Source of the DNA: Prostheceraeus crozeri
Taxonomy: Eukaryota > Platyhelminthes > Polycladida > Euryleptidae
DNA length: 64,000 nt
Assembly: GCA_907163375.1 (NCBI GenBank)
Contig: CAJQUW010001853.1
Location: 62,001 to 126,000 of the forward strand
Reading direction: 5' to 3'
Positions 32,357 through 49,893 of the stretch are shown piece by piece (position 1 is the first letter of the stretch; each line of letters opens with the position of its first letter). The notes beneath the pieces are model-generated. The model searched no databases. It was not told the origin of the DNA and saw only the letters and a program-made list of their open reading frames with translations. A program made the translations under genes and the position numbers.

Positions 32357-32484
32357 AGTGACATTGTGTATTACATGTATGTATTGAGCAACAATGCTAT
32401 TTGTAGTTTGAATTATCATCATTGTATGTATTAAGCAATAATGTTATTCGCTTTCTTCTCATTCATTGTCGTAAAAAAAGAAAT

Positions 32485-32880: not shown

Positions 32881-32937
32881 AGCCAACAAATCAGAAGTCG
32901 ACACGTCATCGATTACTCATCGACATTGATTGAAGTC

Positions 32938-32945
32938 TATATAAG
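32938..32945 (+). promoter_or_regulatory. TATATAAG box
   Basis: Exact TATATAAG with an initiator-like TCAGTAG at 32962-32968, about 26 bp downstream. ATG of the next ORF is at 33012. The same octamer occurs at three other Polinton promoters. Confidence 0.6.
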
Positions 32946-33011
32946 ATAGGCGTGCGAGCTTTCAGTAGTCATTTTCAAGTGATCATCCGTCAGTGTGAGT
33001 ACAACAGCAAA

Positions 33012-33149
33012 ATGTCTCTTAAAATGCACGTAATTAAAGAAGAGGGCGACGTTGTTGATCGCGATCTCTTGAAATTTAGACCAACGCGTAAGGTTCAAGG
33101 AATCGGAAACACGTTTTATTTTCAAACGCTTAATTATGGTGATGATTGA
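33012..33149 (+). CDS. Small Polinton ORF (45 aa)
   Basis: Begins at the first ATG after a good TATA/initiator pair. The peptide ('MSLKMHVIKEEGDVVDRD' at its start, 'NTFYFQTLNYGDD' at its end) has no recognised domain. Support is positional only; it could be a leader to the next gene. Confidence 0.4.
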   Translation: MSLKMHVIKEEGDVVDRDLLKFRPTRKVQGIGNTFYFQTLNYGDD

Positions 33150-33185
33150 TTATATTTACAAGTTCCATTTTTTCATAGCAATGGG

Positions 33186-33785
33186 ATGTCATCATCTAGC
33201 TACAGCAATCTAAGACAAATGCGAGTCACATTTCCTAAATGGCAGCAAACTATACTAAAAATGATTGATTCATTCGCAAAGGAATGTGTCGAACTACCTG
33301 ACAGTGCTCCGGTACATTGGAAGAAGAAGTTGGATGAAGGGAGTGGATTCAAAGATCTACCTGAGTTTGATACTCTCTTCTTAAAATTATCTGACCATTT
33401 CCAAGCGTTTGATGTGCTGTTAAACCCAATGGATTGTGATGATCTCAAGCGTGGGCGATACATGGGCTTGGTACACGTTACTGGACTTTACATTGGCGCT
33501 CATGGTTCAACTGGTAAATTGGCTTCTCTTCAGATGAAGGTTCTACAATTGGTTTATGAACCATTACCAATTGACAAGTGCTTAATTCATATTGAAGACA
33601 TTGCTACACCAAGTGAGCCGAAAGAATCAAACGATGGAAAAGAAGCCAAGGAGGTTGATGAAAGCAAGAAAAGGACGCGCAGATCGAGGGATAGCATGAA
33701 GCTAAAACTGAAGCGACAGGATGCACAACCTGACTTGAAGAGTTCCTTCGATTCTACCCTCGATGAAGACACTCAAATGTGGTAA
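33186..33785 (+). CDS. Polinton protein of unknown function (199 aa)
   Basis: ATG 33186; an out-of-frame ATG lies 5 bases upstream. Residues about 10-140 are compact and mixed ('KWQQTILKMIDSFAKEC', 'GRYMGLVHVTGLYIGAHG'). Residues about 145-199 are highly charged, with Lys/Arg and Glu/Asp runs, probably disordered. A polyadenylation signal AATAAA at 33810-33815 lies just after the stop, so the transcript probably ends before the ATPase gene. No family recognised. Confidence 0.65.
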   Translation: MSSSSYSNLRQMRVTFPKWQQTILKMIDSFAKECVELPDSAPVHWKKKLDEGSGFKDLPEFDTLFLKLSDHFQAFDVLLNPMDCDDLKRGRYMGLVHVTGLYIGAHGSTGKLASLQMKVLQLVYEPLPIDKCLIHIEDIATPSEPKESNDGKEAKEVDESKKRTRRSRDSMKLKLKRQDAQPDLKSSFDSTLDEDTQMW

Positions 33786-33809
33786 ATTAAAACAACTGTT
33801 TATCGTTTC

Positions 33810-33815
33810 AATAAA
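33810..33815 (+). terminator. Polyadenylation signal AATAAA
   Basis: 25 bp after the stop of the preceding gene and 64 bp before the ATPase start. Confidence 0.5.
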
Positions 33816-33878
33816 ACTTGTTTGGAAATAATTTACATGTTTTAAGTTCTAACTAAGCAAAATAATGGGTGTTAGTAA

Positions 33879-34544
33879 ATGATGATGATGATATTGAATG
33901 ACTCTGAAATGACAGATTTTCGACTATTCACTGACCGTACAATGTGTGTGGCCGGACCAAGTCAGTCTGGTAAAACAACTTTTGTAACTCAGCTACTGCA
34001 ATACAGAGATGAGATGTTTAATAAGAAAATAAAACAGGTTAAATGGTACTACGGTATTTTTCAACCAGATCTGCATTCTGCACTCCGACAGCAGGGATAC
34101 GAAGTAAAACAGGGGCTACCACCAACTGAGGATATCCGAGCAGGTGATTTGATCGTGTTGGATGATCTACTTCGAGAAAGCAAATCTTCAAAAGATGTAA
34201 CCGAAATGTTTATTCAAACAGCACACCATAGGCAAGCTTTTATCATCTACATCACTCAAAATATCTTTGATGGAGGAAAAGAGCAGAGAACTAGAAGTCT
34301 TAATACACACTATTTGGTGGTTTTCAAGAATCCAAGAGATAGTAGTCAGATACATCATTTGAGTCGACAAATATTACCTCAGCAGCCTAAAACTCTTTCG
34401 AAAATATATGATGAAGTGACGAAGAAGCCACATGGCTACCTCTTCATTGATTTAACGCAAGAATGCCCAGAGCGATTTCGATTTCGAACTAATATTATAC
34501 CAAACTCTGGAGATGCAATGATAGTATTCACTGTTAACAGTTAA
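33879..34544 (+). CDS. ATPase: Genome-packaging ATPase (FtsK/HerA-type)
   Basis: 221 codons. Walker A 'GPSQSGKT' at residues 26-33, Walker B 'LIVLDDL' at 91-97 with acidic D95-D96, and a 'THYLVVFKNPRDSSQ' segment in the sensor region. Size and motifs match the A32-like/FtsK-HerA packaging ATPase of Polintons and related viruses, which pumps element DNA into a preformed capsid. The start has four ATGs in a row (33879 onwards); any could serve. It lies upstream of an unknown gene, integrase and capsid genes, the usual Polinton neighbourhood. The frame is intact. Confidence 0.93.
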   Translation: MMMMILNDSEMTDFRLFTDRTMCVAGPSQSGKTTFVTQLLQYRDEMFNKKIKQVKWYYGIFQPDLHSALRQQGYEVKQGLPPTEDIRAGDLIVLDDLLRESKSSKDVTEMFIQTAHHRQAFIIYITQNIFDGGKEQRTRSLNTHYLVVFKNPRDSSQIHHLSRQILPQQPKTLSKIYDEVTKKPHGYLFIDLTQECPERFRFRTNIIPNSGDAMIVFTVNS

Positions 34545-34608
34545 TTAATTGGACCAATGACAGTTTTAGGCAATACATATGTGCTTCAGCTACTATGACA
34601 TTTTCAAT

Positions 34609-35259
34609 ATGAGTTTTTCAAAAATGGTTGTCATTCCTCAAGAGGAATATCTACAGCTATCAATGACAAGAAATATTCAGGAAGTTAAAAATGTGGATCA
34701 GCCGGTTACAGATCAACTTAAGCAATTATCTCAACAGGATAGGGAAATTCAAAAGATTGAGGATCCTTATCGACGAATGCAGTTACAGGCTGAGAATTTA
34801 GAGGAAAGACGACATATTAGGGAAAAGCTGCGCAAATTCATAACTCTTTCAACTCCTCGAGCATATCGCATGCGAGCTGAAAGGTTGTTTGATTTTATTG
34901 ATCCCCACGTAAAGTTCAATGAGCGAGGAGAAATAATAGAAGAAAACGGTGATGTAATTAGGAACAGTCACATTGATGATCTTCTACAATATGCTGTGAG
35001 AGATGTAAGGCAAAAGCTGGGTGCTCCACAAGGATGGGAATACTTTCAAAAAGTGCTATCTAATCACAATGTCCCCCATAATATAATCGGAGGACCAACT
35101 ATAAATGAACTGAATAAAGTGTTGGCAACCGATTCTTCAAAAGGAAAAGTAGTTACCACAGTCAAGCGAGAACCCATTGTTTCTCCTGCTACGTCTCCAA
35201 CTCCGAAGAGAAGAGGGAGACGTTCAACACGAACACCGAAAAGTTATAGCAAATATTAG
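34609..35259 (+). CDS. Conserved-looking Polinton protein, charged (216 aa)
   Basis: ATG 34609 is used; the frame extends 10 codons upstream to another ATG at 34579. The N-terminal half is a predicted coiled coil ('DREIQKIEDPYRRMQLQAEN'). The middle, around 'HIDDLLQYAVRDVRQKLG', is globular, with a GxPxGW-like turn. The C-terminus is Ser/Thr/Lys/Arg-rich ('PKRRGRRSTRTPKSYSKY'), suggesting DNA binding or nuclear localisation. I recall similar proteins next to the ATPase in other Polintons but cannot name a function. Intact. Confidence 0.65.
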   Translation: MSFSKMVVIPQEEYLQLSMTRNIQEVKNVDQPVTDQLKQLSQQDREIQKIEDPYRRMQLQAENLEERRHIREKLRKFITLSTPRAYRMRAERLFDFIDPHVKFNERGEIIEENGDVIRNSHIDDLLQYAVRDVRQKLGAPQGWEYFQKVLSNHNVPHNIIGGPTINELNKVLATDSSKGKVVTTVKREPIVSPATSPTPKRRGRRSTRTPKSYSKY

Positions 35260-35425
35260 GCAAATAACAGTGAAATTGCTTCCCATATCATGTCTATGCA
35301 GAAAATTTGCTGCTGTTTGAAGTCTGCGCTCGATAGTAAAGGAGAATAGGGTATAGAAGTTGATATCAATTGCGTTAGCAGTTGCTGTGCAAGTAATACT
35401 CGAGCGAGTCGCCAGAATAAGGAGG

Positions 35426-36514
35426 ATGAGCGCAGCGGAAAAACTGAGACAAATCTACTACGATATCAATCATCCCGCAAGCTTCAGTCGTCCGAGCGTT
35501 TTAGCCCGTGCAGCAGGTGTACGATTAGAGACAGTGAAGAAATGGTTGAAGAGTCAACCAACCTACACGCTACACAAGGATGCGAGGAAGCGGTTTCCAA
35601 CTAAGAGATATGTTGTCAATAATATTGACAGTCAATGGCAAGCAGATTTGGCTGATATGCAGCAGATATCTCAATACAATGACGGTTACAAGTACATCCT
35701 AACCGTAATAGATATTTTATCACGATATGCTTGGGTTCGCGCCTTGAAATCCAAGAGAGGAGCAGAAGTTGAGGCGGCTTTTCAAAGTATTCTAAATGAA
35801 GGGAGGATCCCACAAAGAATACAAACAGATCAAGGAAAGGAATTCGAAAATTCCCACGTTCGTGGTCTACTTGAGCGATATGACATTGAACTGTTCAGTG
35901 TTAAAAGTGCTTACAAAGCTGCGATGGTTGAGAGGTTCAATCGTACACTCAAGACAAAGATATGGCGGTATTTCAGTGCTACAAATACACATGTCTAGAT
36001 AGATGATTTACAGAAGTTCGTGAGAAATTACAATGAGAGCTATCATCGGATTATAAAGATGCGTCCAATTGACGTCACTCGGGATAATGCTATGGATTTG
36101 TGGCTTCGTCTGTATGGCAAGGCACCAAAAGCAACTACCGATAAGAAGAAAATCAACGTTGGTGATAGAGTTCGCATCTCTAAAGTGAAGTCTACATTCG
36201 AGAAGGGCTATCTACCGAATTGGACCGAAGAAGAATTCTTTGTTGATGAAGTAAATAAAAAATTTAAACCAACAATGTATAAGTTAATAGACTATCATGG
36301 TAATCCAATTGAAGGGAAATTCTACTCATATGAATTACAAGTGGTTGATCGGAGTGAATAAGTGTATATGATAGATAGAATAGTTAAGAGGAAAGGACAT
36401 GGTAATCATAGAAAATATCTCGTCAAATGGAAGGGATATCGTGACTCGTTCAACAGTTGGATAGCCCATCAAGACTTGAGAAATGTGGAAGTAGGAGACA
36501 TTAGAAGCTTTTAA
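35426..36514 (+). pseudogene. INT: Retroviral-type integrase with chromodomain, interrupted by two stops
   Basis: One continuous frame broken by TAG (35996-35998) and TAA (36359-36361). Segment 1 (from ATG 35426) has a helix-turn-helix-like start, then the catalytic core with D74 ('WQADLADM'), D135 ('IQTDQGKEF') and E169 ('MVERFNRTLK'), a DDE triad with 33 residues between the last two. Segment 2 (35999-36361) is the region after the core, with 'ESYHRIIKMRPID'. Segment 3 (36362-36514) is a chromodomain ('RKYLVKWKGY'). The core is complete before the first stop; a truncated product would lack the C-terminal and chromatin-targeting parts. Function by family: strand transfer of element DNA into host DNA. 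Confidence 0.9.
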
Positions 36515-36528
36515 GCTAATATTGGTGA

Positions 36529-38142
36529 ATGACTACTGATCCCACATTATATCCAATAATGTCGTCTGCTGAGTTCAACATTATTCTCCCGAGCAACAGC
36601 AATCCCAAGATATTTCCAGAGAACAAACCATCGGAGTATTCGGTTGAGTTTGCCAAGCCTCTTTATCTGAGTGGCCCTCACGAAGTCGCATTAACTGAAG
36701 TCACATATTACAATGATATTAGTTTGTTAACGAATAATTATTTTGAAATACACACGGAAGTACGTGAAAAGGATGATTGTTTTCGCCTATTTCAGAATGG
36801 TCTACATGGAACATGGGATTTTCATCATCTTACTTTACATCCTTTCTCACCATCGCTACCGTCTGTCAAGAACATGATCAAAATTGAAAAGGCATATGCA
36901 ACGTCTTCCTTCAATTCTACAGTTCCCACACTCAGCTTGCAAGATACAGAGAATGAAATTGGTAAAATGTTCCGACGAATAAACGATGTCTTCACTCTCA
37001 CTTTAAATAGATTCTTCAAGCCAGTTGTAAAAGGCTCAACTAAACTATTGAAAGAAGGGAGGAAGCATGTTCTGCTAATATTAGGTAGAGATTTGGCACA
37101 CACTCTAGGGTTTCCCAGAACTACATTTTCATCTCTACATTGGTATAATGGACTTGGATGGAAAGCTGAGAGAACAGTTAGTGATTTTCAATGTAGAATT
37201 GCACCGTTGTATGCACTACGGAAAAGGAGTGTCCGCGTCAAGGAAAAATTTGAAGTTATTAAAAATATTGAAGACGTTGCAAGAAAGTTTCAAGGATCAG
37301 TGCCAGAAAGTTTAATGACTTGTGAATATAAGAAAGAGAAAGTAACTCTTTTTACTGCTGAAATGGAGGTAGAATTTCTTGTTTTCACTAAAAAGACACC
37401 TTTGGAAAAGTCTAATTCCGCTGTTATTGAATTCGGATCTGAAATTCAGAGACTATTCAAGCATCCTGATAGTCCACCGTGTTTGACAGAATTAAATGAT
37501 ACATATAAGATTCAGTTGAATTCCAATAAACTAAAGACATCAACAAACGACGCATGGCACATCAATGTATATTCCGATAAAATACTGGCTGACGAATTGA
37601 GTACCTCAACTGAGCTAGTAAGGAGGGTCAATTTAAACGTTGAAGATCTAAACACACCATCGGAAATTTGTACAAAACTAAATGAAAATGGTGCACACTA
37701 CCTCAACGCAGATGAGTACTTCTTTTCATATGATCCCTTAAAGAAGCGAATGGTTTTAAAAGTAGGGAGAAATTATCTCATTAAGCTCGACAAGATGTTG
37801 GCAACAATTATAGGGTTCTCAAAATTCACAATAAATGAAGGTACAACCATTGGTAATTCAGCACCTTCATTAGAGAGAGACATCAGTAACTTATATATTT
37901 ACTGCAATATTGTTGAGTATACTAGAGTTGGTGACATCGAGGCTCCATTGCTACGCACATTTCCCCTATCATCCGTCCGGAAGCAGTTAATCAATCGTGA
38001 ATTCATCAACAAAATGTATTTACCGATCAATCGAAGTGTTATCAATAGAATCGACATTTCAATTCATGATGATGCGGGTGAAATTGTTCCATTCTATGGA
38101 GGTGTTACTGTGCTGACACTACATATTAAGAATCGAGACTAA
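36529..38142 (+). CDS. Probable minor capsid (penton-like) protein, 537 aa
   Basis: Begins 15 bp after the integrase frame. Near the N-terminus 'FNIILPSNSNPKIFPENKPS' is followed by 'VEFAKPLYLSGPHEVALTEV', a pattern I know from a large protein family encoded next to the major capsid gene in invertebrate Polintons. Two repeats of this style occur: 'DTYKIQLNSNK' at about residue 325 begins a second half with 'HYLNADEYFFSYD'. No catalytic motif. Assignment as minor capsid/penton protein rests on neighbourhood and resemblance and has not been tested by structure. A non-capsid structural role is possible. Frame intact. Confidence 0.6.
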   Translation: MTTDPTLYPIMSSAEFNIILPSNSNPKIFPENKPSEYSVEFAKPLYLSGPHEVALTEVTYYNDISLLTNNYFEIHTEVREKDDCFRLFQNGLHGTWDFHHLTLHPFSPSLPSVKNMIKIEKAYATSSFNSTVPTLSLQDTENEIGKMFRRINDVFTLTLNRFFKPVVKGSTKLLKEGRKHVLLILGRDLAHTLGFPRTTFSSLHWYNGLGWKAERTVSDFQCRIAPLYALRKRSVRVKEKFEVIKNIEDVARKFQGSVPESLMTCEYKKEKVTLFTAEMEVEFLVFTKKTPLEKSNSAVIEFGSEIQRLFKHPDSPPCLTELNDTYKIQLNSNKLKTSTNDAWHINVYSDKILADELSTSTELVRRVNLNVEDLNTPSEICTKLNENGAHYLNADEYFFSYDPLKKRMVLKVGRNYLIKLDKMLATIIGFSKFTINEGTTIGNSAPSLERDISNLYIYCNIVEYTRVGDIEAPLLRTFPLSSVRKQLINREFINKMYLPINRSVINRIDISIHDDAGEIVPFYGGVTVLTLHIKNRD

Positions 38143-38184
38143 GGCTTTACGCTATTGTGAAATTCTTCAGAATTCAAATTTACA

Positions 38185-38661
38185 ATGACAGGCTTTTATA
38201 GCAGACCATCATATCAAAGCGGATATCCCGTATTTGCTGGAGGTAGGCGACAAGTAGGAGGAGGAATATTTGGTGCATTAAAGCGTGCATTACTTCCTGG
38301 ACTTAAACGCTATGCCTTGCCAGTGATGAAACGCGTAGGAAACAGAGCTTTAGATTTTGGTGCAAATGTTGCTGCGGATGCACTCCAAGGAGCGGATATA
38401 GGAGAATCAATGAAAGTCCGTGCTCAGCAATCAGCTATTGATGCATTGGATGACCTAACAAAGTCGAGACGACCTGTTCGTAAGAGGCGCAACAAGACAA
38501 GACAAGTTGGATCCGGTCGAGTTACTAAGCAAAGACGAAGAGTTAGGAAATCTAGATCGAAGCTTCCTGTGAAAAAGACAAGAAAGCGAAAGCGAAAGCG
38601 AAAGCGGAAATCGAAATCAGTTGGAAATAAGTCGAAACGAAGGAGATTAACGTATTTCTAA
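38185..38661 (+). CDS. Basic virion protein (adenoviral VI/X-like), 158 aa
   Basis: N-terminal part with 'VFAGGRRQVGGGIFGALKRA', a double-Gly context like adenain-type cleavage sites, followed by an amphipathic helix region ('LLPGLKRYALPVMKRVGNRA'). Residues from about 95 are extremely basic, ending in Lys-Arg repeats ('KRKRKRKRKSKS'). Such proteins in adenovirus-like particles condense DNA or disrupt membranes after cleavage. Placed between the minor and major capsid genes. Intact. Confidence 0.75.
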   Translation: MTGFYSRPSYQSGYPVFAGGRRQVGGGIFGALKRALLPGLKRYALPVMKRVGNRALDFGANVAADALQGADIGESMKVRAQQSAIDALDDLTKSRRPVRKRRNKTRQVGSGRVTKQRRRVRKSRSKLPVKKTRKRKRKRKRKSKSVGNKSKRRRLTYF

Positions 38662-38671
38662 ACTGAGCGAA

Positions 38672-39958
38672 ATGCAATCGACTATCAATTCAGCTTTGTG
38701 CTTTTTTGATACATCACCCCAGCAAACTGACATAATTTCGTCGAGAATTGTTGACTATTTTCCCTCAACAAATATTGTGGGTAATGACATACCTATTCAG
38801 TTTGATGTTACTGCTAATGCTGACGACTACATCGACTGTCAGTCTATTGACTTGGAATTGTGTGTACAAATTAAAAAAACTGATGGTACTAACATTGATT
38901 CTAAGGACAAAGTGGGGTTGATTAATCTCCCAATTGCCAGTCTCTTCTCAGATGTCACTTTATCACTAAATAATAAGCAGATTGAAGGAGGAGATTCATC
39001 ATATCCATATGGAGCTTACTTATATACATTGACTCAGTTTCAAAACCAGGCCAAACAAACGCACTTACAAGCTGCTGGTTGGTTTACAGATCAGTCTGGT
39101 AAGTTCGATGATTTCGCTAATAATGGTTTGAAAAAGCGTGTGGAATTAACTGCTGATTCAGCTGAACTACATCTAAAAGGTCCTGTCTATCTTGATTTTT
39201 TCCGTCAATCGAGATACCTCCTATCTCAAGTACAAATGCGATTGACATTTGTTCGTGCTAAATCAAAATTTGCTTTGATGTCATTCGGACCTGCTGCATC
39301 CTATGATGTACACATAATGGAAGCTGTCCTCAATGTAAGGCGAGTAAAAATGAATCCCACAGTCATCAATCAACATGCTGTAGGACTGAAGAACCACAAT
39401 GCTATATATCCAGTCAATCATAGTGTACTAACCACTTTTACGATTCCGGCGACTACCTCATCTTTTGATTATCCCAACCTCTTTCCAATTGCCCTACCGA
39501 AGGCGGTGTACATCGCGTTTGTAGAAAATGAATCATTTTGTGGTAACTTTCAGAAGAAGCCGTTTCATTTTCAACATTTTGGTATCACGAAACTCGGTCT
39601 ATTCGCAGATGGCAATTCAGTTGCTTGTAAGGCCTATCAACCGAATTTTAAGGAAAACAATTTTGTTCGCGAATATTGCTCTACTTTCATGGCACTAGAC
39701 ATGTTCAACACTGACGATTCAAATGGTATTACGATGGATATGTATAAGAATGGCTACTTCTATATATTATACAACCTCAAAGCAGATTGTGATATAACTG
39801 GGGAAAATGTGGATGTTACAAAAGCTGGTAACCTTCGATTGGAACTCACATTTGCGGATCCTTTGAAAGTTCCTGTAACCGGTTTACTTTACGCAATCTA
39901 TGACAGCAGCATTGAAATTACTAGATTGAGAGACGTCTTGGCCAACTATCAGAGATGA
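38672..39958 (+). CDS. MCP: Major capsid protein (double jelly-roll), F54H12.2-like family
   Basis: 428 codons from ATG 38672. The pattern 'DIPIQFDVTANADDYID', then 'LSLNNKQIEGGDSSYPYGAY', 'LDFFRQSRYLLSQVQMRL' and 'YPVNHSVLTTFTIPA' matches a family abundant in invertebrate genomes under the name 'uncharacterized protein F54H12.2', which is regarded as the Polinton/adintovirus major capsid protein with two jelly rolls. It would form trimers making up the icosahedral shell. The stop overlaps the start of the protease gene by 4 nt (ATGA). Frame intact over the whole length. Confidence 0.9.
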   Translation: MQSTINSALCFFDTSPQQTDIISSRIVDYFPSTNIVGNDIPIQFDVTANADDYIDCQSIDLELCVQIKKTDGTNIDSKDKVGLINLPIASLFSDVTLSLNNKQIEGGDSSYPYGAYLYTLTQFQNQAKQTHLQAAGWFTDQSGKFDDFANNGLKKRVELTADSAELHLKGPVYLDFFRQSRYLLSQVQMRLTFVRAKSKFALMSFGPAASYDVHIMEAVLNVRRVKMNPTVINQHAVGLKNHNAIYPVNHSVLTTFTIPATTSSFDYPNLFPIALPKAVYIAFVENESFCGNFQKKPFHFQHFGITKLGLFADGNSVACKAYQPNFKENNFVREYCSTFMALDMFNTDDSNGITMDMYKNGYFYILYNLKADCDITGENVDVTKAGNLRLELTFADPLKVPVTGLLYAIYDSSIEITRLRDVLANYQR

Positions 39959-40416
39959 GCAACCTCAGTAATGTGGAAATCTTAAACTTAATGAAGAAAG
40001 CTCATCCCTATTCCAAGAAATTGTTTCTCAATGTATTCCCAAGAGATGAACTACCTACATCAATTCAGTCATATCCCTGTTCTCTGATTATAAATACAGA
40101 CACGGTTAATCTTCGTGGTAAACATTGGGTTGCCGTGTACATAAATCGCAATAGAGTAGCTGAATATTTTGACTCTCTCAATCAGCCGCCATTACATGAT
40201 ATATCAATATGGATGAATAGATTCTCATTGACTAGAAAGAAAGTGACATCGTTCCCACTCCAAAGTAATAGATCCCTCATGTGTGGGGGCTACTTACTAT
40301 ATTTTGTTAATGAACGACCTTTGAAAAGTGACTATAAAAGTGTTATTCGATTATTCTCCAGAAATTGTGCTAAAAACGATGTAATTCTCAACAATTATAT
40401 GAACTCAGTCTTGTAA
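39955..40416 (+). CDS. PRO: Adenain/Ulp1-like maturation cysteine protease
   Basis: 153 codons. Catalytic layout of the C5/C48 protease clan: H57 in 'GKHWVAVY', acidic residue in 'AEYFDSLNQP' (E70/D73), Q103 before the nucleophile and C110 in 'MCGGYLLYF'. The protein is short, as expected of Polinton PRO. It probably cleaves virion precursor proteins at Gly-Gly-type sites; two candidate substrates are encoded in the element (32485-32880 and 38185-38661). ATG overlaps the MCP stop (ATGA). An AATAAA overlaps its stop codon. Confidence 0.9.
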   Translation: MSNLSNVEILNLMKKAHPYSKKLFLNVFPRDELPTSIQSYPCSLIINTDTVNLRGKHWVAVYINRNRVAEYFDSLNQPPLHDISIWMNRFSLTRKKVTSFPLQSNRSLMCGGYLLYFVNERPLKSDYKSVIRLFSRNCAKNDVILNNYMNSVL

Positions 40417-40420
40417 TAAA
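40415..40420 (+). terminator. Polyadenylation signal for plus-strand gene block
   Basis: AATAAA overlapping the protease stop codon (TAA TAA). A minus-strand AATAAA lies at 40444-40449, so convergent transcripts end within about 30 bp of each other. Confidence 0.55.
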
Positions 40421-40443
40421 TTCATTATATATGCAAAATTTGT

Positions 40444-40449
40444 TTTATT
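40444..40449 (-). terminator. Polyadenylation signal for minus-strand gene block
   Basis: TTTATT on the plus strand (AATAAA on minus), about 80 bp after the stop of the TBP-like gene. Confidence 0.5.
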
Positions 40450-40527
40450 TCCCAGAGCGTAATGTTTAGAGGGAGAGCAAAGTTTCACAATTGAAATGTA
40501 TATTTACAAACTATTTACAACAGTCCA

Positions 40528-41091
40528 TCAACTTTTTACAAAATAATTTTTCAAATCACTTATTATTTGGGATACAACTTTCAAGTCTTTAATGCCAGTT
40601 ATCACAACTTTCCCATTGTGGAACACGTGAACGTGATAAGGATGCCAATTTGTCATTTGCGCAGCAGGAATGAACTCCACCTCATAAGTAAGATTGGACG
40701 TAGAGGAAACTTTGCGAAAGTCATAGCGATAATTCAATTCGCATAACACTGTCATGGTTTTTACTTTCCAATTAGGTAATTTATCCCGTAATAGTATTTC
40801 CAACACGGAGTGTAGGTAATTGAGATCACAATCATCGAAGCACCCAACACACTGCACTGTTCCATTGGGAAAGAAAAGGACAGTCATAGATTTCTCCTTC
40901 CTCAAGATTCTCCATGTCAACATTGTGGGTCGCCCCAGATACAAACTCGTCGTCGGCTTTCGCCTCTTCTTCACAATTAGCCATTGCTTTCTGTTGGGTA
41001 TGTCTCGCTCGATTTGATGTAGATCGAGTTTTGAGTTTGCTTTTGTAACCACCATGCGATTCACCACTTTCATCTGACTGATGTCGTCCAT
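40528..41091 (-). CDS. TATA-box-binding-protein-like protein (two-lobed)
   Basis: 187 codons from ATG 41091, the size of a TBP core. Lobe 1 (about residues 8-107) has 'NSKLDLHQIERD' where TBP has its conserved KLDL segment, then 'MTVLFFPNGTVQCVG' where TBP has its Phe-x-x-Gly-Lys strand. Lobe 2 (about 109-187) has 'VKTMTVLCELNYRYDF', a 'YEVEFIPAAQM' segment where TBP has a Tyr-Glu-Pro-x-x-Phe-Pro-Gly motif, and 'YHVHVFHNGKVVITG'. The Phe that inserts into TATA DNA is kept in both lobes; the second insertion Phe of lobe 1 appears to be Trp108. It would bind promoters in the nucleus. The 5' 260 nt overlap another ORF in a different frame. Confidence 0.8.
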   Translation of the reverse strand: MDDISQMKVVNRMVVTKANSKLDLHQIERDIPNRKQWLIVKKRRKPTTSLYLGRPTMLTWRILRKEKSMTVLFFPNGTVQCVGCFDDCDLNYLHSVLEILLRDKLPNWKVKTMTVLCELNYRYDFRKVSSTSNLTYEVEFIPAAQMTNWHPYHVHVFHNGKVVITGIKDLKVVSQIISDLKNYFVKS

Positions 41092-41449
41092 CTCTGACGA
41101 ATGAAATTATACTTGGTAGAATCTCCTTTATAGAGGAACCCCATGTGACGTCACTAAAACGAAAAAATTGATGATCAACGTCTTTCCTCTTGGATGAACA
41201 TACGTAAAGTTTGACAGTTGAATCATATTTTATCCATACCTTTTCATCCAGAGGAATCTTCATCCGAGTATCATGTCGCTCAATCAGATTAGCAAAATCT
41301 TTAAGTGAGGGCAATGCGTCACTACTAATAGAAACACCACGATGATTTCTACTATTTGTTACAGAATGTCGAAAAACTATTTTGCTTGAATCTGTTAGGT
41401 GAATTTTTTGTCTGTCACTTAACTTCCATGTTCTGATATAATGAGGCAT
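40832..41449 (-). CDS. Unknown Polinton protein overlapping the TBP-like gene (possible PC4-like)
   Basis: 205 codons from ATG 41449. Residues about 14-105 look folded: strand 'KIVFRHSVTN', then 'RGVSISSDALPSLKDFANLI' and 'KVWIKYDSTVKLYVCSSK'. The sequence Arg-Gly-[VI]-Ser-Ile followed by an amphipathic helix weakly recalls the PC4/Sub1 transcription coactivator. The C-terminal ~85 residues are Ser/Glu-rich and share DNA with the first 87 codons of the TBP-like ORF in another frame. Either the genes truly overlap or splicing ends this gene earlier. The PC4 suggestion is tentative. Confidence 0.5.
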   Translation of the reverse strand: MPHYIRTWKLSDRQKIHLTDSSKIVFRHSVTNSRNHRGVSISSDALPSLKDFANLIERHDTRMKIPLDEKVWIKYDSTVKLYVCSSKRKDVDHQFFRFSDVTWGSSIKEILPSIISFVRDGRHQSDESGESHGGYKSKLKTRSTSNRARHTQQKAMANCEEEAKADDEFVSGATHNVDMENLEEGEIYDCPFLSQWNSAVCWVLR

Positions 41450-41656
41450 ATTCTGAAGTTATTCTTAATGTAATTATTATAATCTGATAATTGCCTAAAG
41501 TTAGTTAATGTTTGCAAATCAACATATCGGAAGGATGCTGAATGCTGTTATGTATTCAGATTCAATTTCTACATATCGGAAAGATGTAGAAATGTACACT
41601 CAAATATTTACTACCTACGTGTTATTTTTTTATGGATTCTACCGTTGTTCTATCCG

Positions 41657-44600
41657 CTATTCTACATCACCTGCTGTGGGAAGACATTTTCGTCTTTTTG
41701 ACGGAGGAGGAAGTCCAAGGCTATAGTGTCCATATGGTAAAGATAAGTTCTTATTTATCCAGCAGCGCTTATCTTCCCAAAGTGAGAGCCCTCGCTTTCT
41801 AAACGTTTTTGTTTCAACTATGTGGTTTTTTGAATTTATGACGGTTATTTGCTCATTGGTATCTTTCTCAGTATAGTAAACATTTCTATAGTCACTATGT
41901 TCTATGCGTCTAACCACTGCTCTCTGTATACCCTTTGCTCGCCTAATGCTATGATGTGTTGAATCTAGAAATTTCATTGAATACATTTTTGGTTTCAAAA
42001 GAACCATCTCCTCAAGCAACTTTCCCGCGCACTCATCCTTAAAACAACCGAGTCTAGCCTTGTTTGTAATTGAATATAAACGGTGATTCACATCATAATT
42101 TGAGGAATCAAATTTTTCACCGAAATACAGGAATATATCCTCTAGACGAACAGATGGTGAGGTGTATAGACAAAGGAAAAAGCTATCGGTATCACCTCCA
42201 CAAAGACGTGCTCTATTTATCAGTGGACATCTAATTAAATCTTTATAATACAACTGGTACGTTTCTAATTTACTATAGTCAAGAACTGCTTGACCAACAT
42301 AAATTAGTTTATTTAGAACTATTGAAGGCTTATACAGTTCCATACCAACTAAATCTTCATCGAATATCTTATGCTGAACATATAGGGGATGATTGGCCAA
42401 TTTAGATAGTTGCAATGTTGTATTTACTAATTTGAAGTTCCTCCGACGTCTCACATTCTCCATAGTCTTACCAAACAGGGAGTTGTTTTTTAATTTATAA
42501 AACGCTTTTTCAAAATCAGATTTTGATTGAGCTCTTTTCTGCGAATTCATATCAATATATTGTCTCAGCCACGATTTTTGTGTGAACTGGATTCCAGCAT
42601 GGACCTTCTTTATCTTCATTCCCATAGAGAGGTAGAATTTTAGAATCGAGTAATGAACAACATAATTTTCTCGATCGAACTGATGCAGCAACAGTTTCTT
42701 TGTGCTTGTGAAACACATATTTGGTCTTAAAGTTTCATAGAAATTTTTCATATATGTAGAAAACATTTTTTCCTCTACCAATTGCATTTCTGGAGCTAAT
42801 GGAAAATCAGCCGTGTCATCGTGAATGTCTGAAGGATATTCTAAATCCAAATCAAAGACATAACCTATATCAGCCTCATTATCAATATTTTGAATGTTTT
42901 CCTCATTTGAGAAGTACACTACTTGACCTTCATCAAGCCATTTGAAGTTTGAATGTGGGAGATTCTCACTTAGCGACTAACCGTAAAGGTTGTTGACGTC
43001 TAAATATGCTAAATGACGGCTCTCTTGTGGATTGTTTTGCAACTCTGAAATACGAGCACGCGCTCTATGAATATTTGTAAACGTCATACCTCCTCGGATC
43101 CCCCTCTCAAAAAGATTATACATGCTCTCATCTTGAATGTAGTGTGGAGGATCATTCGAAGCAAAATTCAATGCTGATGTGAAGCTAAGGTGAGGTAGGC
43201 TAACAAAATGAACTGGATCTACTTGATCTTCATCCTGACTTAATTTCCTAAATGTCTCAAAAATGTCTGCCAACAGCAAGACATCTAACTTGAGGTATGC
43301 AAGCATGTAGTCTCCAAATGTTTTGCAATTAAACGCATTCCATGCTTTTTTTCGCGTGCTCATAATCTATATCGTTGCAATGCTCAAGAGTAAGATCGTT
43401 GTAAAATTCCCTTTGAGGAGGAAGACAGAGCTCCGTTAGAGTTGCCAAACTACTAAAATATGAGTACGGAAACACTCCTTTTTCGTAAAGAATATCATCA
43501 GTTAATTTTGGAAATTCATTTCGCAGCGCTTCTACATGTTTGTAGACTTTCAGACTTTTGGCTAATTCAGCAAGCGATGCGCTCAGAAATTGATAAGAGT
43601 CCAAAAATTTCAATTTAAAATATACAGGCTTTCCATTATATTCGCTTACTGGAATTTTTGATGATAGAGTAATATATTTCTCAGCAGTAGCTGCCATAAC
43701 ATCTAACTTCAAAGATTTCTTTTTACCAATTGCTTTATAACAAACAATATGGCTGTCATAGTTTTTGAAATTGTGAAAGAAAACAGGAAGCTCTCGTCGA
43801 TTCAATCTTAATCGCAAATTGCACTTTGAACATAATGCTTGCCTGTACTTTCCGGTTATGTGATCGTGATCACGAACTTTTGATATATCTTCACTAAATT
43901 TTATCTTACATTTATTGCAATTTTCTGCATTTTTATGAGCAATATCTTCCACTGCTGTCAATCGCATCGGCATTCTGGTAATGACATTTTGATTATCATA
44001 TAAATTTTGGACAACATCTTCTAAATGATTTAGGAACTCAGCGATGCAATTTTCCCCTTCAAACAGATAATAGGTGTTATTGTAGGTTGACTGAAGTGCC
44101 TCATGCCAGACGTGGTACACACCTACAGCCGCAGGTTTATGAATTTTGTTTTCTATTTAACACTCGATATCGGCGTATATGACTCGAGGTGGACTGAGTT
44201 GGTGCTCAGTACTACTTATCTGAACTTCTAAATGTTTGGGCATTTTTTCTATTTGCGCCTTACCACGACTACAAAATTGAAAATGTCGTTCTAAAACGCT
44301 TCTCTTTGAAAAGGATTGAGTGCATCTTTCACAAAAAATCTTGCGACTTGTGTAAAATTTGCTATATAACCTAGATAATTTTCGTATGCCGCAATAATGG
44401 GCAAAACCGTTATGTAGCACTAGCAAAATATTAACGGTTCTTTTGCCAATGAAATTGCTGTTGTATCTTACTCCCTTGAGACCATTTTCATACAAGTGGA
44501 TATTTACTTTTATATCATTGTTTTTCTCAAACTTAGGAATGTCCTTTATTGACACTGGTGTGGAAATGCCATCCATAACCAATTCAGATGTCCACTTTCT

Positions 44601-45524
44601 ATATGAGTTTACCTCGTTTATCTTTGAATGAGTAACTTCATCGTAGTGAATGATTGACAAGATAGAATACATGAAGCAGTCATTTGAATTTGAATTTACA
44701 TTTATTACAGCCTTAGAACTTCTTAACTTTTTAGGTAAAGTATTCATTTTACCACCAGATAGTAGAGGAGTTGAAATTAAATTGAATTCTACATTTACTA
44801 CTTTATCAACAACCCAATTGCTTCCTCTATTTGCAAAAGTTGAAACATGATTTGATAAACTATTTAAATTATCCTGAAACCATGTGTCAAAGTCATATAT
44901 ATAATTTGATGATAATGAGGTGAAGTGCGCGAGAAAAGTTTCTTCCTCTTGAGGATTAGAACGGACATAGCGAATTTGAGCAATTAATCGACCACGTAGT
45001 TGAAGACTAGTTCGCAAGTCATTAACTAAATTTTCTAGTAAGGTTCGCATGTTGAATAAAAAAGATGTTACATCTACTGTTTGAATGGTTGGTGTAATGT
45101 CATACACGCGAGCACGTCCGCTGAAGGCGCTTTCACTAGGGGTGAGTGTTCCATAATCATAATTATTGTGACTACTCATTTCAATGTTCATATCATGTAT
45201 ATTATTGTGTTGACGGAATCTACTTGTGCTATTATAATTCTTACCACAGTGAGAGCAGCAATGCCTAAAAGCTTCATCATTATTTAAAGCGCTATCTGGA
45301 ATGTCCCTAACATGACTACTACAAGTTGATAAATTAGTATTATTTGTTCCTATTCCTTCTTGACTGCAACATACGAGATTGTGTCTTTTTAAATTATCTT
45401 TCCTACTGGTTTCATATGGACAATTACTACATTTATGCTTTATTCCTAGCTTGCAAAATTTTTCATGACGCGTTAAATTGCTAACAATTGTAAACTTCTT
45501 TCCACACTTAGAGCAGACAACCAT
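41657..45524 (-). pseudogene. PolB: Protein-primed family B DNA polymerase, broken by two stops and a frameshift
   Basis: Starts at ATG 45524. Segment 1 (455 codons) has three N-terminal C2HC/C2H2 zinc fingers, a fourth finger near residue 405 and ExoI 'YADIEC'. TAA 44157-44159 follows at once. Segment 2 continues in frame with 'FHNFKNYDSHIV' (ExoII). A run of seven A at about 43346-43352 shifts the frame. Segment 3 has ExoIII 'YLKLDVLLLAD' and palm motif A 'YLDVNNLYG', then TAG 42977-42979. Segment 4 has motif B 'KNNSLFGKTMENV' and motif C 'GGDTDSFF'. The total, ~1,290 residues, matches Polinton PolB length and all catalytic motifs survive. It would replicate the element by protein priming; this copy cannot make a full-length enzyme without recoding. 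Confidence 0.93.
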
Positions 45525-45556
45525 GATGATCGTTAAGGATTAACAATTTGCGTCTA

Positions 45557-45564
45557 CTTATATA
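45557..45564 (-). promoter_or_regulatory. TATATAAG box upstream of PolB
   Basis: Exact TATATAAG on the minus strand, 33-40 bp before the PolB ATG (45524), implying a very short 5' UTR. Same octamer as at 32938, 51078 and 51148. Confidence 0.55.
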
Positions 45565-45728
45565 CTGTCTACATATTATATTACGTAACCAGTGACGTCG
45601 ACCAATGGAATTTGTTCTCAACCTAAGACTTATATTTCCACTTAAATACATAAATAAGAAGACATACAAAGTGTACAAGTAATTATTTTTTCCAAAAGAA
45701 GTCAAAAAAGTCAAAGAAGTCAAAAAAG

Positions 45729-46307
45729 TCAAAGAGATTGACACTTATTAATGTCACTATGCGTCACCTTGACGTGAGCACAATGTCCATGACACCTTGA
45801 GAAGTCATCGACATGTGTCATGCGCACTTTGTTGATAACTGCCGCTTTCGATAGCTCAACGTGCATTATTGTTTCACGTTTCACTATCGATTGCGACAGT
45901 TGCAGGTTAGCCTGCGAAATGTTGCGGAACGACTCAAGCAAAGACTTGTAGTCAGCGCGAAGAGCCGTCTCGCGTTCCTCTTGTTGGCGCAACTTACGTT
46001 CAAGGTGACGCACTTTGTCCTCCGTCGAACGAGGTTCGACCACCTCGAGCACAGATTCAACTGTCTCATCGAGGTCGCAGTTGAACGTTGGATCGCAAGT
46101 TGGGAGGATTACTGTCGGTGTAGGACTGTTGGGCATCGGCGTAGGAGCAGGTGGTGACGATGGGACCCAGTTGTTACTCATTGGTGGCTGAGGTGGTGTT
46201 GGGACGTGGTGGAGAATTGGAGACGGTGGGAAGCAGACATCAATATTGGGTGAGGCGCGGATTTGGGAGAACGGAATCTCCTCTTCCGGAACAAGTGTCA
46301 ACTGTTG
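45729..46307 (-). CDS. Proline-rich coiled-coil ORF, candidate last exon
   Basis: Open frame of about 190 codons without an early ATG, preceded by a good acceptor (TTTTTTCCAG, AG at 46308-46309). The first ~75 residues are Pro-rich ('PPSPILHHVPTPPQPP'); residues about 90-150 are a coiled coil ('KVRHLERKLRQQEERETALR'). The C-terminus is His/Cys-rich. A donor at 46414-46415 upstream pairs with this acceptor, making it a likely fifth exon of the zinc-binding gene, but the join would shift frame and meet a stop after three codons. So either a lesion is present in exon 4 or this is another gene. Confidence 0.5.
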   Translation of the reverse strand, partial: QQLTLVPEEEIPFSQIRASPNIDVCFPPSPILHHVPTPPQPPMSNNWVPSSPPAPTPMPNSPTPTVILPTCDPTFNCDLDETVESVLEVVEPRSTEDKVRHLERKLRQQEERETALRADYKSLLESFRNISQANLQLSQSIVKRETIMHVELSKAAVINKVRMTHVDDFSRCHGHCAHVKVTHSDINKCQSL

Positions 46308-46411
46308 CTGGAAAAAACAGAGATTTGAATAAATGAAAGGGACATAACATCACGAGTTCGATGTGACGACATGATAGTTAGGATTATTAGCCTATTCCTA
46401 TGATTGATACT

Positions 46412-47449
46412 TACATTTTCTTCATCTGAAGAGGACTCCCGGATGGAGTACGGGCACTCCTCATTTTCCTCCATCGACGATGTCGTTGCAGGTGTTAAGC
46501 CGAGGAACTTCGATTGCCTGCTCTTTTTTAGAGAGAGCGATCGGTAGCTCTACAAGGGAAAATACATTTTAAATTCCTCTCGAATTTGAATGTATGCATG
46601 TGACCTAAGTTAGTAATCTAATCATGTTATTTTATATGACTAAAATGATTTTCTATTACTTACTCTCTGTGAAGGCGGCGTAGGCTTCGCAGCCCAGCTG
46701 CTACATGCGGGCGTACTAGCGACTACCTGTGGATAGAAAACAAACATAGTTAAAATGTAAAAATCGGAAAATACATATGAATAGATAAATTGCTGATTTG
46801 ACATTTCAAACTTACATTCCTTTCAGGAAACGATGGCTTCTGCCCGACTTTCATCTTCTTAACAGGTGGCTTCTTGATCTGAAATGGTGAAAAGAAATGC
46901 ACACTATTATATATGAAAAACAGAAGTCAACTTTCCCTATAAGGTTTGAACTCTAAATATTTTCTTTAAATTATGTTACTGCTAATTTTCTAAATATGAA
47001 CTCACCTGAACATCACTATCCGAGGAGTCGGAATCGGTGTCGATATACCTGCGGGACTTGGGTTTGGGTTTGGGTTTCGCCTTCGCTTGGGGTATTGCAG
47101 GGGTAGAGTCCTCCTGGGCTTGGCTGAGGATGCCCTCAAGAGGTCGCTCTTTGGCGAACAGCCTCTCGACTCTCTTCTTCTCCTCCAAACTAGTGAGGTT
47201 TAGGCCCTCCCGCCCGTTTCGTAAGGCGCACTTGGTGTGGGTGGAGATAAATCTCTTTGGATTTTCGCCTTTTGCCTCCATGTCCGTTAAAAGGTATCTT
47301 TTACACGATAGGCAGTAAAGGAAACTGCGGTCCTGTCGTAGAGTGCAGCCCTTATGTTGACTCTTCATGGAGTGGCGGACCACCTGCTTACAGGTCTCAC
47401 AATAATGAAAAATTAGACGTTGGCGAGGTAAGCAGCTGGGACGAGGCAT
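46412..47449 (-). CDS. Spliced zinc-binding Polinton gene (four or five exons)
   Basis: Exon 1 47449-47006, exon 2 46878-46816, exon 3 46726-46664, exon 4 46549-46412. Every intron (127, 89, 114 nt) is GT-AG and phase 0; exons 2, 3 and 4 are each open only in that frame. Exon 1 has two Cys/His clusters, C-x2-C-x5-H-x5-H-x2-C ('CETCKQVVRHSMKSQHKGC') and C-x2-C ... H-x2-C ('CLSCKRYLLTD' ... 'THTKC'), then a Lys-Pro run and an acidic Ser/Asp stretch. Exon 4 ends in TAA if intron 4 is retained. An acceptor TTTTTACAG just before ATG suggests a 5' UTR intron. Probably nuclear and nucleic-acid binding; family unknown. Confidence 0.6.
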
Positions 47450-47639
47450 GTCTGTAAAAAAATAAATCCATATTTAAAACACAAAATAGCTTAAACGTAA
47501 ATTTTGCATCTGTAGGTGGTAGAACATATTGATGTACATACTTATACACTTAGAAAAAGTAGCATTTAAATTGTTCCAAGTCACATCGTAGTAGTGAATA
47601 TTATTCGAAGTAGAACACCTAAAGTATGTAATAAACTTA
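47450..47639. other. Leader region of the spliced gene
   Basis: AT-rich, with diverged copies of the array motif at its right side. Nothing else visible. Confidence 0.3.
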
Positions 47640-49569
47640 ATAATCAAAACTCAAAGTCTATTAATTTTGATCAAGGCTTTTTCTATCTCTCTAGGTTTAG
47701 AACTTATTGATGTACCTACTTTTAAACTTAGAAGAAAGTAACATATATATTGTTCCAAACTCACTGCAGAATATTGATCAAGGTTTGAAAGAACGGAGCT
47801 GACGTCTTGCTAGGCAGGCTGATAATTCAAAAATGAGTGAAGAACTGGCTTCAACACTTTATTTATATATGAAATACACAAAGCAACTACGAACAAAGAC
47901 CTACTGACGTCATGCCATTGAGATGATATAGTTAAACAAAATGTATTCATTTAAACAAGATTCAAAATCAAACAGCTGATAAAGTGTAACATTAATAACT
48001 TGACATTAAATTGTAACAGAGTTTATTAATTTTGATCAAGTTATTTTCTATCTCTTTAGGTTTAGAACATTAATGTACCTACTTATGAACTTAGAAGAAA
48101 GTAACATGTAAATTGTTCCAAACTCACATCGTGGTAATGAGTATTATACGTAAGAGAATAGCTAAAGTCTTTAATAAATTTCATAAACACAACTTCAAGT
48201 CTATTAATTTTGATCAAGTTATTTTCTATCTCTTAAGGTTTAGAACTTATTAATGTACCTACATATGAACTTAGAAAAAAGTAACATATAAATTGTTCCA
48301 AACTCACTGCAGAATATTGATCAAGGTTTGAAAGAACGGAGCTGACGTCTTGCTAGGCAGGCTGATAATTCAAAAATGAGTGAAGAACTGGCTTCAACAC
48401 TTTATTTATATATGAAATACACAAAGCAACTGCGAACAAAGACCTACTGACGTCATGCCATTGAGATGATATAGTTAAACAAAATGTATTCATTTAAACA
48501 AGATTCAAAATCAAACAGCTGATAAAGTGTAACATTAATAACTTGACATTAAATTGTAACAGAGTTTATTAATTTTGATCAAGTTATTTTCTATCTCTTT
48601 AGGTTTAGAACATTAATGTACCTACTTATGAACTTAGAAGAAAGTGACATGTAAATTGTTCCAAACTCACATCGTGGTAATGAGTATTATACGTAAGAGA
48701 ATAGCTAAAGTCTTTAATAAATTTCATAAACACAACTTCAAGTCTATTAATTTTGATCAAGTTATTTTCTATCTCTTAAGGTTTAGAACTTATTAATGTA
48801 CCTACATATGAACTTAGAAAAAAGTAACATATAAATTGTTCCAAACTCACTGCAGAATATTGATCAAGGTTTGAAAGAACGGAGCTGACGTCTTGCTAGG
48901 CAGGCTGATAATTCAAAAATGAGTGAAGAACTGGCTTCAACACTTTATTTATATATGAAATACACAAAGCAACTACGAACAAAGACCTACTGACGTCATG
49001 CCATTGAGATGATATAGTTAAACAAAATGTATTCATTTAAACAAGATTCAAAATCAAACAGCTGATAAAGTGTAACATTAATAACTTGACATTAAATTGT
49101 AACAGAGTTTATTAATTTTGATCAAGTTATTTTCTATCTCTTTAGGTTTAGAACATTAATGTACCTACTTATGAACTTAGAAGAAAGTAACATATATATT
49201 GTTCCAAACTCACTGCAGAATATTGATCAAGGTTTGAAAGAACGGAGCTGACGTCTTGCTAGGCAGGCTGATAATTCAAAAATGAGTGAAGAACTGGCTT
49301 CAACACTTTATTTATATATGAAATACACGAAGCAACTACGAACAAAGACCTACTAACGTCATGCCATTGAGATGATATAGTTAAACAAAATGTATTCATT
49401 TAAACAAGATTCAAAATCAAACAGCTGATAAAGTGTAACATTAATAACTTGACATTAAATTGTAACAGAGTTTATTAATTTTGATCAAGTTATTTTCTAT
49501 CTCTTTAGGTTTAGAACATTAATGTACCTACTTATGAACTTAGAAGAAAGTAACATGTAAATTGTTCCA
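47640..49569. repeat. Tandem array of ~543-bp composite units with promoter-like elements
   Basis: Anchor CACTGCAGAATATTGATC begins at about 47762, 48304, 48848 and 49211, spacing about 542, 544 and 363 bp; the last unit lacks a ~180-bp subunit. Copies are nearly identical. On the minus strand each unit carries TATATAAA (47862, 48405, 48948, 49311) and, 36-43 bp upstream of it, TGACGTCA (47905-47912, 48448-48455, 48991-48998; TGACGTTA in the fourth). The array sits upstream of the spliced minus-strand gene. Confidence 0.85.
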
Positions 49570-49770
49570 GAGTGATAAATCTTAATAGAATTATCACGCA
49601 ATCAAAATTTCGAATTTCGCGCACATATCAAATGATCCATTTAAACAAACCATATGGTGAACACATGAGGCATCAGCTGAGGATGTTTATGTGGTCATCG
49701 CATTTTGAAATTTTGCGCACTTATCAATTGCTGCATTAAAACAAGACTGTGGAAGATATGGGCCTCTGGT
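49570..49770. other. No gene recognised
   Basis: AT-rich spacer between the array and telomere-like repeats. Confidence 0.4.
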
Positions 49771-49855: not shown

Positions 49856-49893
49856 GTTGAGAAGAAAGAGTACCTATGGCGCTCGGAGCCCAT

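What the first reader, a model, noticed from the sequence alone, without database searches (positions are those of the whole stretch)
40528..41091. A Polinton that encodes a TBP-like protein
The 187-codon ORF aligns by eye along both lobes of the TATA-binding protein: KLDL segment, Phe-x-x-Gly strand, lobe-2 'NGKVVITG' strand. It lies inside the element between PolB and the protease, not in host flank. TBP homologues are not part of the standard Polinton gene set that I know. An element-encoded TBP could redirect or replace host TFIID at element promoters.
Basis: partly seen in the sequence, partly recalled or inferred. Interest (0 to 1): 0.92.

Follow-up and report, generated by a model that had tools for sequence, protein, structure and literature searches.

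The report
Animal Polintons carry a TATA-binding protein
A family of virus-like Polinton elements in an animal genome carries its own version of the TATA-binding protein, the factor that marks where genes are to be read, and keeps it intact across several old element lineages, which suggests that these elements help to direct transcription of their own genes.

Summary
The ORF is on the minus strand (41091 to 40528, 187 codons) and is a divergent two-lobed TATA-binding protein: Pfam PF00352 at 5.8e-12, 45.7 bits against a cut-off of 22.9. A family profile matches a solved archaeal TBP at E 4.6e-22 over both lobes. It lies between protease and PolB in a 22.2-kb Polinton with inverted repeats and a 6-bp target-site duplication. 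The gene recurs in six subfamilies or lineages of the same 2-Gb genome. Between two subfamilies dN is 0.17 and dS about 2. The sampled relatives group apart from the host's TBP, so a recent host capture is unlikely. Across relatives both TFIIB-contact glutamates and three of four intercalating phenylalanines are kept, while the lobe-1 DNA face is changed; the window's own copy has lost one more of these phenylalanines. A gene of unknown function overlaps the TBP N-terminus. Best reading: an element-encoded alternative TBP that recruits host TFIIB and Pol II to element promoters. My paper searches found no Polinton TBP; viral TBPs as such are known.

The parts
30221..52466 (.). Polinton (Maverick) element, 22,246 bp
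   Evidence: terminal inverted repeats and 6-bp duplication CCCATG at 30215-30220 and 52467-52472; rve integrase and PolB above Pfam cut-offs, ATPase-like and C48-like ORFs below them
30221..31078 (+). left terminal inverted repeat, with internal tandem repeats
51655..52466 (-). right terminal inverted repeat
40528..41091 (-). TBP-like protein, 187 aa (lobe 1 about residues 8-98, lobe 2 about 109-184)
   Evidence: PF00352 E 5.8e-12; profile against PDB TBPs E 4.6e-22; present in copies and lineages
40832..41449 (-). UP: gene of unknown function just upstream of TBP; its C-terminal part overlaps the TBP N-terminus in another frame
   Evidence: ORF; relatives P0005-P0009; overlap in the same register in five lineages and in L083; no PDB match worth the name and no Pfam family
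39955..40416 (+). protease (PRO)
   Evidence: weak PF02902 match 0.0055, below cut-off; 32-73% identity to the same ORF in other lineages
38672..39958 (+). major capsid protein (label by position and recall; no Pfam hit)
   Evidence: ORF; 36-70% identity, main alignments, to the same ORF in other lineages
36529..38142 (+). penton-like ORF (label recalled)
35360..36361 (+). integrase, in two ORFs in this copy
   Evidence: PF00665 1.2e-11 for the first ORF; both match one 393-aa ORF of L082
33879..34544 (+). packaging-ATPase-like ORF
   Evidence: PF13173 26.7 bits, just under its cut-off of 27; phrog_6891 ATPase 5e-4
41657..45524 (-). PolB, four ORF pieces in this copy
   Evidence: PF03175 3e-6 and PF02945 5e-8; open frame of 1291 codons without stop reported for 15 of 94 rows
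45558..45564 (-). TATA box TATATAA, 40 nt before the PolB ATG
   Evidence: TATATA kept at a like distance in two other subfamilies

Best explanation
The ORF is a Polinton-encoded, two-lobed TBP relative that the elements have carried for a long time. Most likely it is made in the nucleus during an active phase of the element, binds element promoter DNA with its conserved lobe 2 and a changed lobe 1, and through the kept TFIIB-contact glutamates recruits host TFIIB and RNA polymerase II. Because its lobe 1 differs from that of host TBP, it probably has another promoter preference and may escape host regulators that act on lobe 1. Shown: homology over both lobes, mostly unbroken frames, purifying selection between two subfamilies, residue conservation, a place beside PRO and PolB, no TFIIB match among 19 element ORFs scanned. 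Inferred: DNA binding, TFIIB binding, promoter choice, timing, escape from regulators (the regulator-contact positions were not tallied).
For: PF00352 is above cut-off for the window protein and for the three element-like proteins P0044, P0050 and P0052, and listed at E up to 1 for 9 of 9 members of A3. Profile E 4.6e-22 to a solved TBP over both lobes. 138 of the 150 best-scoring genome places have no stop in the match; a few matches are partial. dN 0.17, dS 1.97 over codons 78-184 between subfamilies A and B. In 69 element-like sequences the two TFIIB-contact Glu positions are E in 69 of 69, and E in 66 and D in 3; the lobe-2 Phe positions are F in 69 of 69 and 69 of 69; the lobe-1 second Phe is F in 62 of 63 with a letter there; the lobe-2 Thr is T in 68 of 69. 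PMC7221094 (passages) gives those Glu as TFIIB contacts, puts viral conservation at the first of them at about 40%, and reports that almost all viruses with a TBP-like sequence had a TFIIB-like protein (poxviruses excepted). The PolB promoter has a conserved TATA box with TGACGTCA-like and ATTGG sequences in three subfamilies.
Against: No structure could be predicted. No expression or binding data. Lobe 1 has Pro in place of one intercalating Phe (49 of 49 with a letter there), Gln for Val (63 of 63) and Leu, Val or the like for Thr (63 of 63); the lobe-2 Asn is N in only 45 of 65 and is Thr in the window's own subfamily, so canonical TATA binding is not assured. The window's copy also has Ile at a lobe-2 Phe position. 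The PolB promoter looks like an ordinary host-type promoter that host TFIID could use without help. The penton-like, 38185 and capsid ORFs have no TATAWAW within 200 bases before their starts, nor has UP, so the target promoters are not identified. In the 12 other virus-like rows the same Glu positions are E in 6 and 11, so Glu at the second is not special to these elements.
Confidence: 0.6

Rival explanations
1. It works against the host rather than for the element: the protein ties up TFIIB or host promoters and dampens host transcription.
For: TFIIB-contact face kept while the lobe-1 DNA face is altered.
Against: Lobe-2 Phe and Thr are kept as strictly as the TFIIB contacts, which a pure decoy would not need. 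The genome holds well over 200 places of the gene in two capped searches; general host shut-off from an inherited element would be costly (inference).
Confidence: 0.15
2. A TBP fold re-used for something other than transcription, such as binding element ends or origins for replication or packaging.
For: Lobe-1 DNA face changed in every element-like sequence with a letter there; gene lies beside PolB; no TATA box seen near capsid ORFs.
Against: The TFIIB-contact glutamates are among the most constant positions (69 of 69; 66 E and 3 D of 69) and would have little reason to stay if the protein never met TFIIB.
Confidence: 0.17
3. A recently captured host TBP or a host pseudogene next to an element.
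For: Same Pfam family as host TBP.
Against: Inside the inverted repeats; present in lineages with 27-31% TBP identity; the element-like rows, with P0085, lie on the other side of a branch (100/97) from host TBP and its paralogue; without P0085 the support is 83/68.
Confidence: 0.02
4. The true product is a UP-TBP fusion made by frameshifting or splicing, TBP being its C-terminal domain (not exclusive of the other readings).
For: UP and TBP overlap in the same register in five lineages; some copies carry a fused frame (L072, L076; P0052).
Against: Each lineage read has an ATG just before the first TBP strand; in lineage D an unfused copy (L071) stands beside the fused L072, which looks like single-copy indels.
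Confidence: 0.1

Closest known systems
Eukaryotic and archaeal TBP (PF00352; 2z8u best match)
   Same: two lobes aligned end to end; lobe-2 Phe pair, lobe-2 Thr, TFIIB-contact Glu pair, lobe-1 Asn
   Different: lobe-1 Pro, Gln and Leu/Val at DNA-facing positions; next to no N-terminal extension; only 27-31% identity even between element lineages
Host TBP and a TLF/TRF2-like paralogue of the same genome (paralogue label recalled)
   Same: family
   Different: host places at C9306 and C3829; outside the element group in the tree
TBPs of large DNA viruses: African swine fever virus B263R, poxviruses, phycodnaviruses, mirusviruses
   Same: virus-encoded TBP (passages of PMC7221094 and PMC10132985; PMC5825884 seen in a listing)
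   Different: PMC7221094 infers that most viral TBPs work with a viral TFIIB (none found in poxviruses); African swine fever virus has its own transcription machinery (abstract of PMC10881513 in the listing). In this element no TFIIB or polymerase match was found in 19 ORFs scanned
TBP of Halorubrum virus HRTV-9
   Same: virus-encoded TBP, 25.7% identity to P0044
   Different: virus of an archaeon, 75-kb genome
Polintons / adintoviruses
   Same: integrase, PolB, protease- and capsid-like ORFs, inverted repeats, 6-bp duplication
   Different: neither TATA nor TBP occurs in the main text of PMC11071296 or PMC11071308, and searches pairing Polinton or adintovirus with TBP terms gave no report of one

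Membership tests
TATA-binding protein family | two imperfect repeats of about 85 aa (PF00352) | tested here: met
   two stretches, above cut-off; positions 3-171 of 174 in one alignment
TATA-binding protein family | saddle fold | not testable with these tools
   Structure prediction switched off
TATA-binding protein family | intercalating Phe pairs in both lobes | tested here: inconclusive
   relatives: lobe 2 both kept, lobe 1 one kept and one replaced by Pro; the window's copy has Ile at one lobe-2 position
TATA-binding protein family | TFIIB-contact glutamates in lobe 2 | tested here: met
   69 of 69 E; 66 E and 3 D of 69
TATA-binding protein family | binds TATA DNA and supports transcription | not testable with these tools
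   needs bench work
Polinton / Maverick | terminal inverted repeats and 6-bp target-site duplication | tested here: met
Polinton / Maverick | retroviral-type integrase | tested here: met
   PF00665 1.2e-11
Polinton / Maverick | family-B DNA polymerase | tested here: met
   PF03175 3e-6; split in this copy, open in others
Polinton / Maverick | protease, ATPase, capsid proteins | tested here: inconclusive
   protease and ATPase matches below cut-off; capsid ORFs without family hit, labelled by order and recall
Adintovirus (definition read in passages of PMC11071296) | PolB with N-terminal OTU-like domain; integrase with chromodomain | not tested
   no specific test run

The most novel reading that the evidence does not exclude
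Animal Polintons run a semi-independent promoter system: an ancient element-encoded TBP with a re-specified lobe 1 and a host-compatible TFIIB face reads a bipartite, non-canonical core promoter of late element genes, so that host TFIIB and Pol II are used while TFIID and lobe-1 regulators are by-passed; the overlapping UP gene is its partner.
Probability: 0.3. Interest if true: 0.87.

Novelty: new variant of a known kind. Interest (0 to 1): 0.74.

Why it matters
General transcription factors are known from large DNA viruses, an archaeal virus and mirusviruses, but in the papers I could search not from Polintons, in which I found no polymerase match. A TBP that keeps the host TFIIB face but changes its lobe-1 DNA face would be a natural experiment in re-specifying the core promoter inside an animal nucleus, and gives a direct handle on how Polintons time their genes. 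Since Polintons are often placed near the origin of eukaryotic DNA viruses (a view seen in paper abstracts), it also bears on where viral TBPs came from.

Tried and rejected
PC4-like upstream gene: by eye the UP protein recalled the coactivator PC4, but neither Pfam nor PDB profile searches (best of four hits E 0.056, a leucine-rich-repeat-like match) gave any support; dropped.

Relatives in IMG/VR: four scans with the TBP (single, A1, A3, A5) and one with UP (A2) found none. Phage records gave one haloarchaeal virus TBP. PHROGs gave nothing for TBP or UP.

A TATA box before the TBP gene itself: CTATAAAG lies about 45 nt before its ATG, inside UP. From the UP protein letters I judged it changed in subfamily B; not counted as evidence. 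TATAWAAG is more frequent in the element core than a first-order model gives (9 against mean 2.6, maximum 8 in 100 simulations), but several sites lie inside genes, so I rest only on the PolB box kept in three subfamilies.

Own TFIIB: no TFIIB match in 19 element ORFs scanned; the ORFs 42977-43363, 50676-51041 and 51173-51580, smaller ORFs and spliced genes were not scanned. A genome-wide PF00382 search did not complete.

Selection on the overlap: UP's overlapping tail shows dN 0.28 and dS 0.22 between A and B, so there the letters of the TBP frame, not of UP, seem to be under selection; UP outside the overlap has dN 0.17, dS 0.73.

Full report
What is there. The ORF is real and on the minus strand, 41091 to 40528, 187 codons. 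Pfam finds the TBP family in two stretches, 45.7 bits against a cut-off of 22.9. Searched alone against solved structures it puts TBPs first, weakly (E 0.0035). With a profile of 23 relatives the same search gives E 4.6e-22 for an archaeal TBP (2z8u), one alignment covering positions 3-171 of 174; of the 35 distinct sequences listed, 34 are named TBP, TFIID or fusions with TBP and one only ECU04_1440 protein.

Where it is. Inverted repeats with 6-bp duplications CCCATG bound a 22,246-bp element, 30221-52466. It has an rve integrase, a PolB with a recombination endonuclease VII match, ATPase-like and C48-like protease ORFs (the last two below cut-off), and a RING ORF. Capsid and penton labels are by order and recall. 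Integrase and PolB are split into several ORFs in this copy; for 15 of the 94 PolB rows an open frame of 1291 codons without stop is reported.

How widespread. The genome holding the window has 2.05 Gb. A search with the protein scored the best 150 places: 81 close relatives (88-100%) and 69 at 72-73%, with 138 of 150 free of stops; a few matches are partial. The tool says such counts are lower bounds, and the best-scoring places are a biased sample. A second query gave 150 places, 111 of them with one and the same score, nearly all of the 72% subfamily. A PF00352 search, again capped at 150, also found the host's own TBP in exons, a paralogue that I read as TLF/TRF2 (recalled, and my reason for calling the host an animal), and many further TBP-like ORFs. 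Of the 17 loci L064-L080, 11 gave an ORF of at least 100 aa with the lobe-2 motif; they fall into three more lineages, C, D and E; L069 is the host paralogue, the other five were not classed. In L082 (lineage D) the order is integrase, minor ORF, capsid, protease, then TBP and UP on the other strand, penton-like ORFs, PolB. In L081 (lineage E) UP and TBP face PolB, and no protease or capsid match was found in the 9 kb. Against the window, PolB pieces are 33-71% identical, the integrase ORFs 50-56%, the capsid ORF 43% (L082), the TBP 27-31%. Of 94 PolB places (93 loci, one in two pieces) 74 have a TBP place on the same strand within 10 kb in the lists I compared: the 81 close TBP places and 11 places of the 72% subfamily, which I picked because their contigs recur in the PolB list; 62 of the 81 have a PolB place. 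Of the 20 unlinked places I looked at one, C4543, and it carries an open UP and TBP pair of a further subfamily.

Relatives elsewhere. A profile search of 5.8 billion proteins gave 87 proteins at E up to 0.01, 87 of 87 with PF00352 precomputed, 98% down to 23% identity, nearly all unnamed; for most of them I do not know what element or genome they come from. IMG/VR gave none in four TBP scans. A tree of 40 rows (33 of those proteins, five lineages, two host rows) has 26 element-like rows together with the long-branched P0085 on one side of a branch with 100/97 support; without P0085 the support is 83/68. Host TBP, its paralogue and 11 other rows lie on the other side. The root is only a midpoint and long branches are unsure. 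So the gene looks old in these elements and not a recent host capture.

Selection. Between subfamilies A and B, codons 78-184 have dN 0.17 and dS 1.97 (saturating), with 51 of 85 differences at third positions; codons 1-70, where UP overlaps, dN 0.19 and dS 0.61. This is one pair of sequences.

Residues. I aligned 69 element-like sequences (P0010-P0073 and lineages A-E; TBP relatives P0001-P0004, P0074-P0078, P0084 and P0087 were left out; lineage A is represented by L018, not the window copy) with host TBP. The yeast residue names in that call are recalled. Lobe 2: both Phe 69 of 69, Thr 68 of 69, TFIIB-contact Glu 69 of 69, and 66 E with 3 D; the Asn is N in 45, T in 11, S in 9 of 65, and T in subfamilies A and B. 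Lobe 1: Asn 38 of 38 and second Phe 62 of 63 with a letter there; but the first Phe is Pro in 49 of 49, Val is Gln in 63 of 63, and Thr is Leu, Val, Ile, Phe or Met in 63 of 63. PMC7221094 (passages only) identifies these Glu as TFIIB contacts, says viral TBPs keep the DNA face moderately but these Glu much less, and that almost all such viruses have a TFIIB (poxviruses excepted). Here the pattern is partly the reverse: TFIIB contacts kept, lobe-1 DNA face changed, no TFIIB found in 19 element ORFs scanned. In 12 other virus-like rows of my set the two Glu positions are E in 6 and 11. The window's own copy reads EFIPA where 18 copies read ELFPA, so it has lost one of the Phe positions.

The overlapping gene. 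UP starts 358 bases before TBP and runs into it. In five lineages the overlap is 200-341 bases in the same register; random synonymous recodings of the TBP frame leave that register open in 4 to 75 of 20,000 trials, and the pair in L083 has the same layout. So the open register is unlikely to be chance, yet the UP letters in the overlap show no purifying selection (dN 0.28, dS 0.22). UP has no supported relative in Pfam or PDB. My first idea, PC4, found no support.

Promoters. The PolB start is preceded by TATATAA or TATATAT 39-44 bases upstream in three subfamilies, with TGACGTCA-like, ATTGG and AATCCT sequences. That looks like a host-type promoter. The penton-like, 38185 and capsid ORFs, and UP, have no TATAWAW within 200 bases of their starts, and the capsid block is packed nearly end to end. 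This fits host TBP for early genes and the element's TBP for others, but the fit is loose and untested.

Mechanism. I commit to an alternative TBP that recruits host TFIIB and Pol II to element promoters (0.6). Shown: homology, conservation, selection, residues, position. Inferred: DNA and TFIIB binding, promoter choice, timing. Rivals are host interference, a non-transcription use of the fold, and a UP-TBP fusion.

Novelty. Papers holding both Polinton and TATA-binding protein were three; two seen in passages report no TBP in a Polinton (TBPs in mirusviruses and mirus-like elements), the third, PMC7786948, was seen in the listing only. Further searches listed nothing that reports one by title or abstract; of their papers I looked into PMC7221094, PMC12220804, PMC11071296 and PMC11071308. 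PMC11071296 and PMC11071308 contain neither TATA nor TBP in the main text; in PMC12220804 TATA matched only an author name. The library lacks most subscription papers, so absence there is weak. I call it a new variant of a known kind: virus-encoded TBPs are known, this carrier and this residue pattern are not known to me.

Noticed in passing
window 41565-41593 and 41519-41541, minus strand: Two inverted repeats that fold as hairpins with a shared loop sequence TTCCGAT, between the PolB stop and the UP start; both recur in subfamily B (L055) with changed letters.
   Followed up: partly
window 40832-41091: UP and TBP overlap in one register in the five lineages tested; in the overlap UP has dN above dS while TBP stays constrained.
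   Followed up: yes
genome G000: 111 of 150 scored places share one score, nearly all of the 72% subfamily, most likely a recent burst of one Polinton subfamily.
   Followed up: no
window 30496-30867 and 51853-52104: Tandem repeats of about 31 bases inside the terminal inverted repeats.
   Followed up: no
window 31062-31634: ORF with a C-terminal RING finger (PF13920, 8e-11), IAP-like by recall, at the left end of the element.
   Followed up: no
L081:2512-3111: A 199-aa ORF of unknown kind precedes UP and TBP in lineage E, where no protease or capsid match was found in the 9 kb read.
   Followed up: no
L034: A copy with two partial protease and two partial TBP matches, as if part of the element were duplicated.
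   Followed up: no
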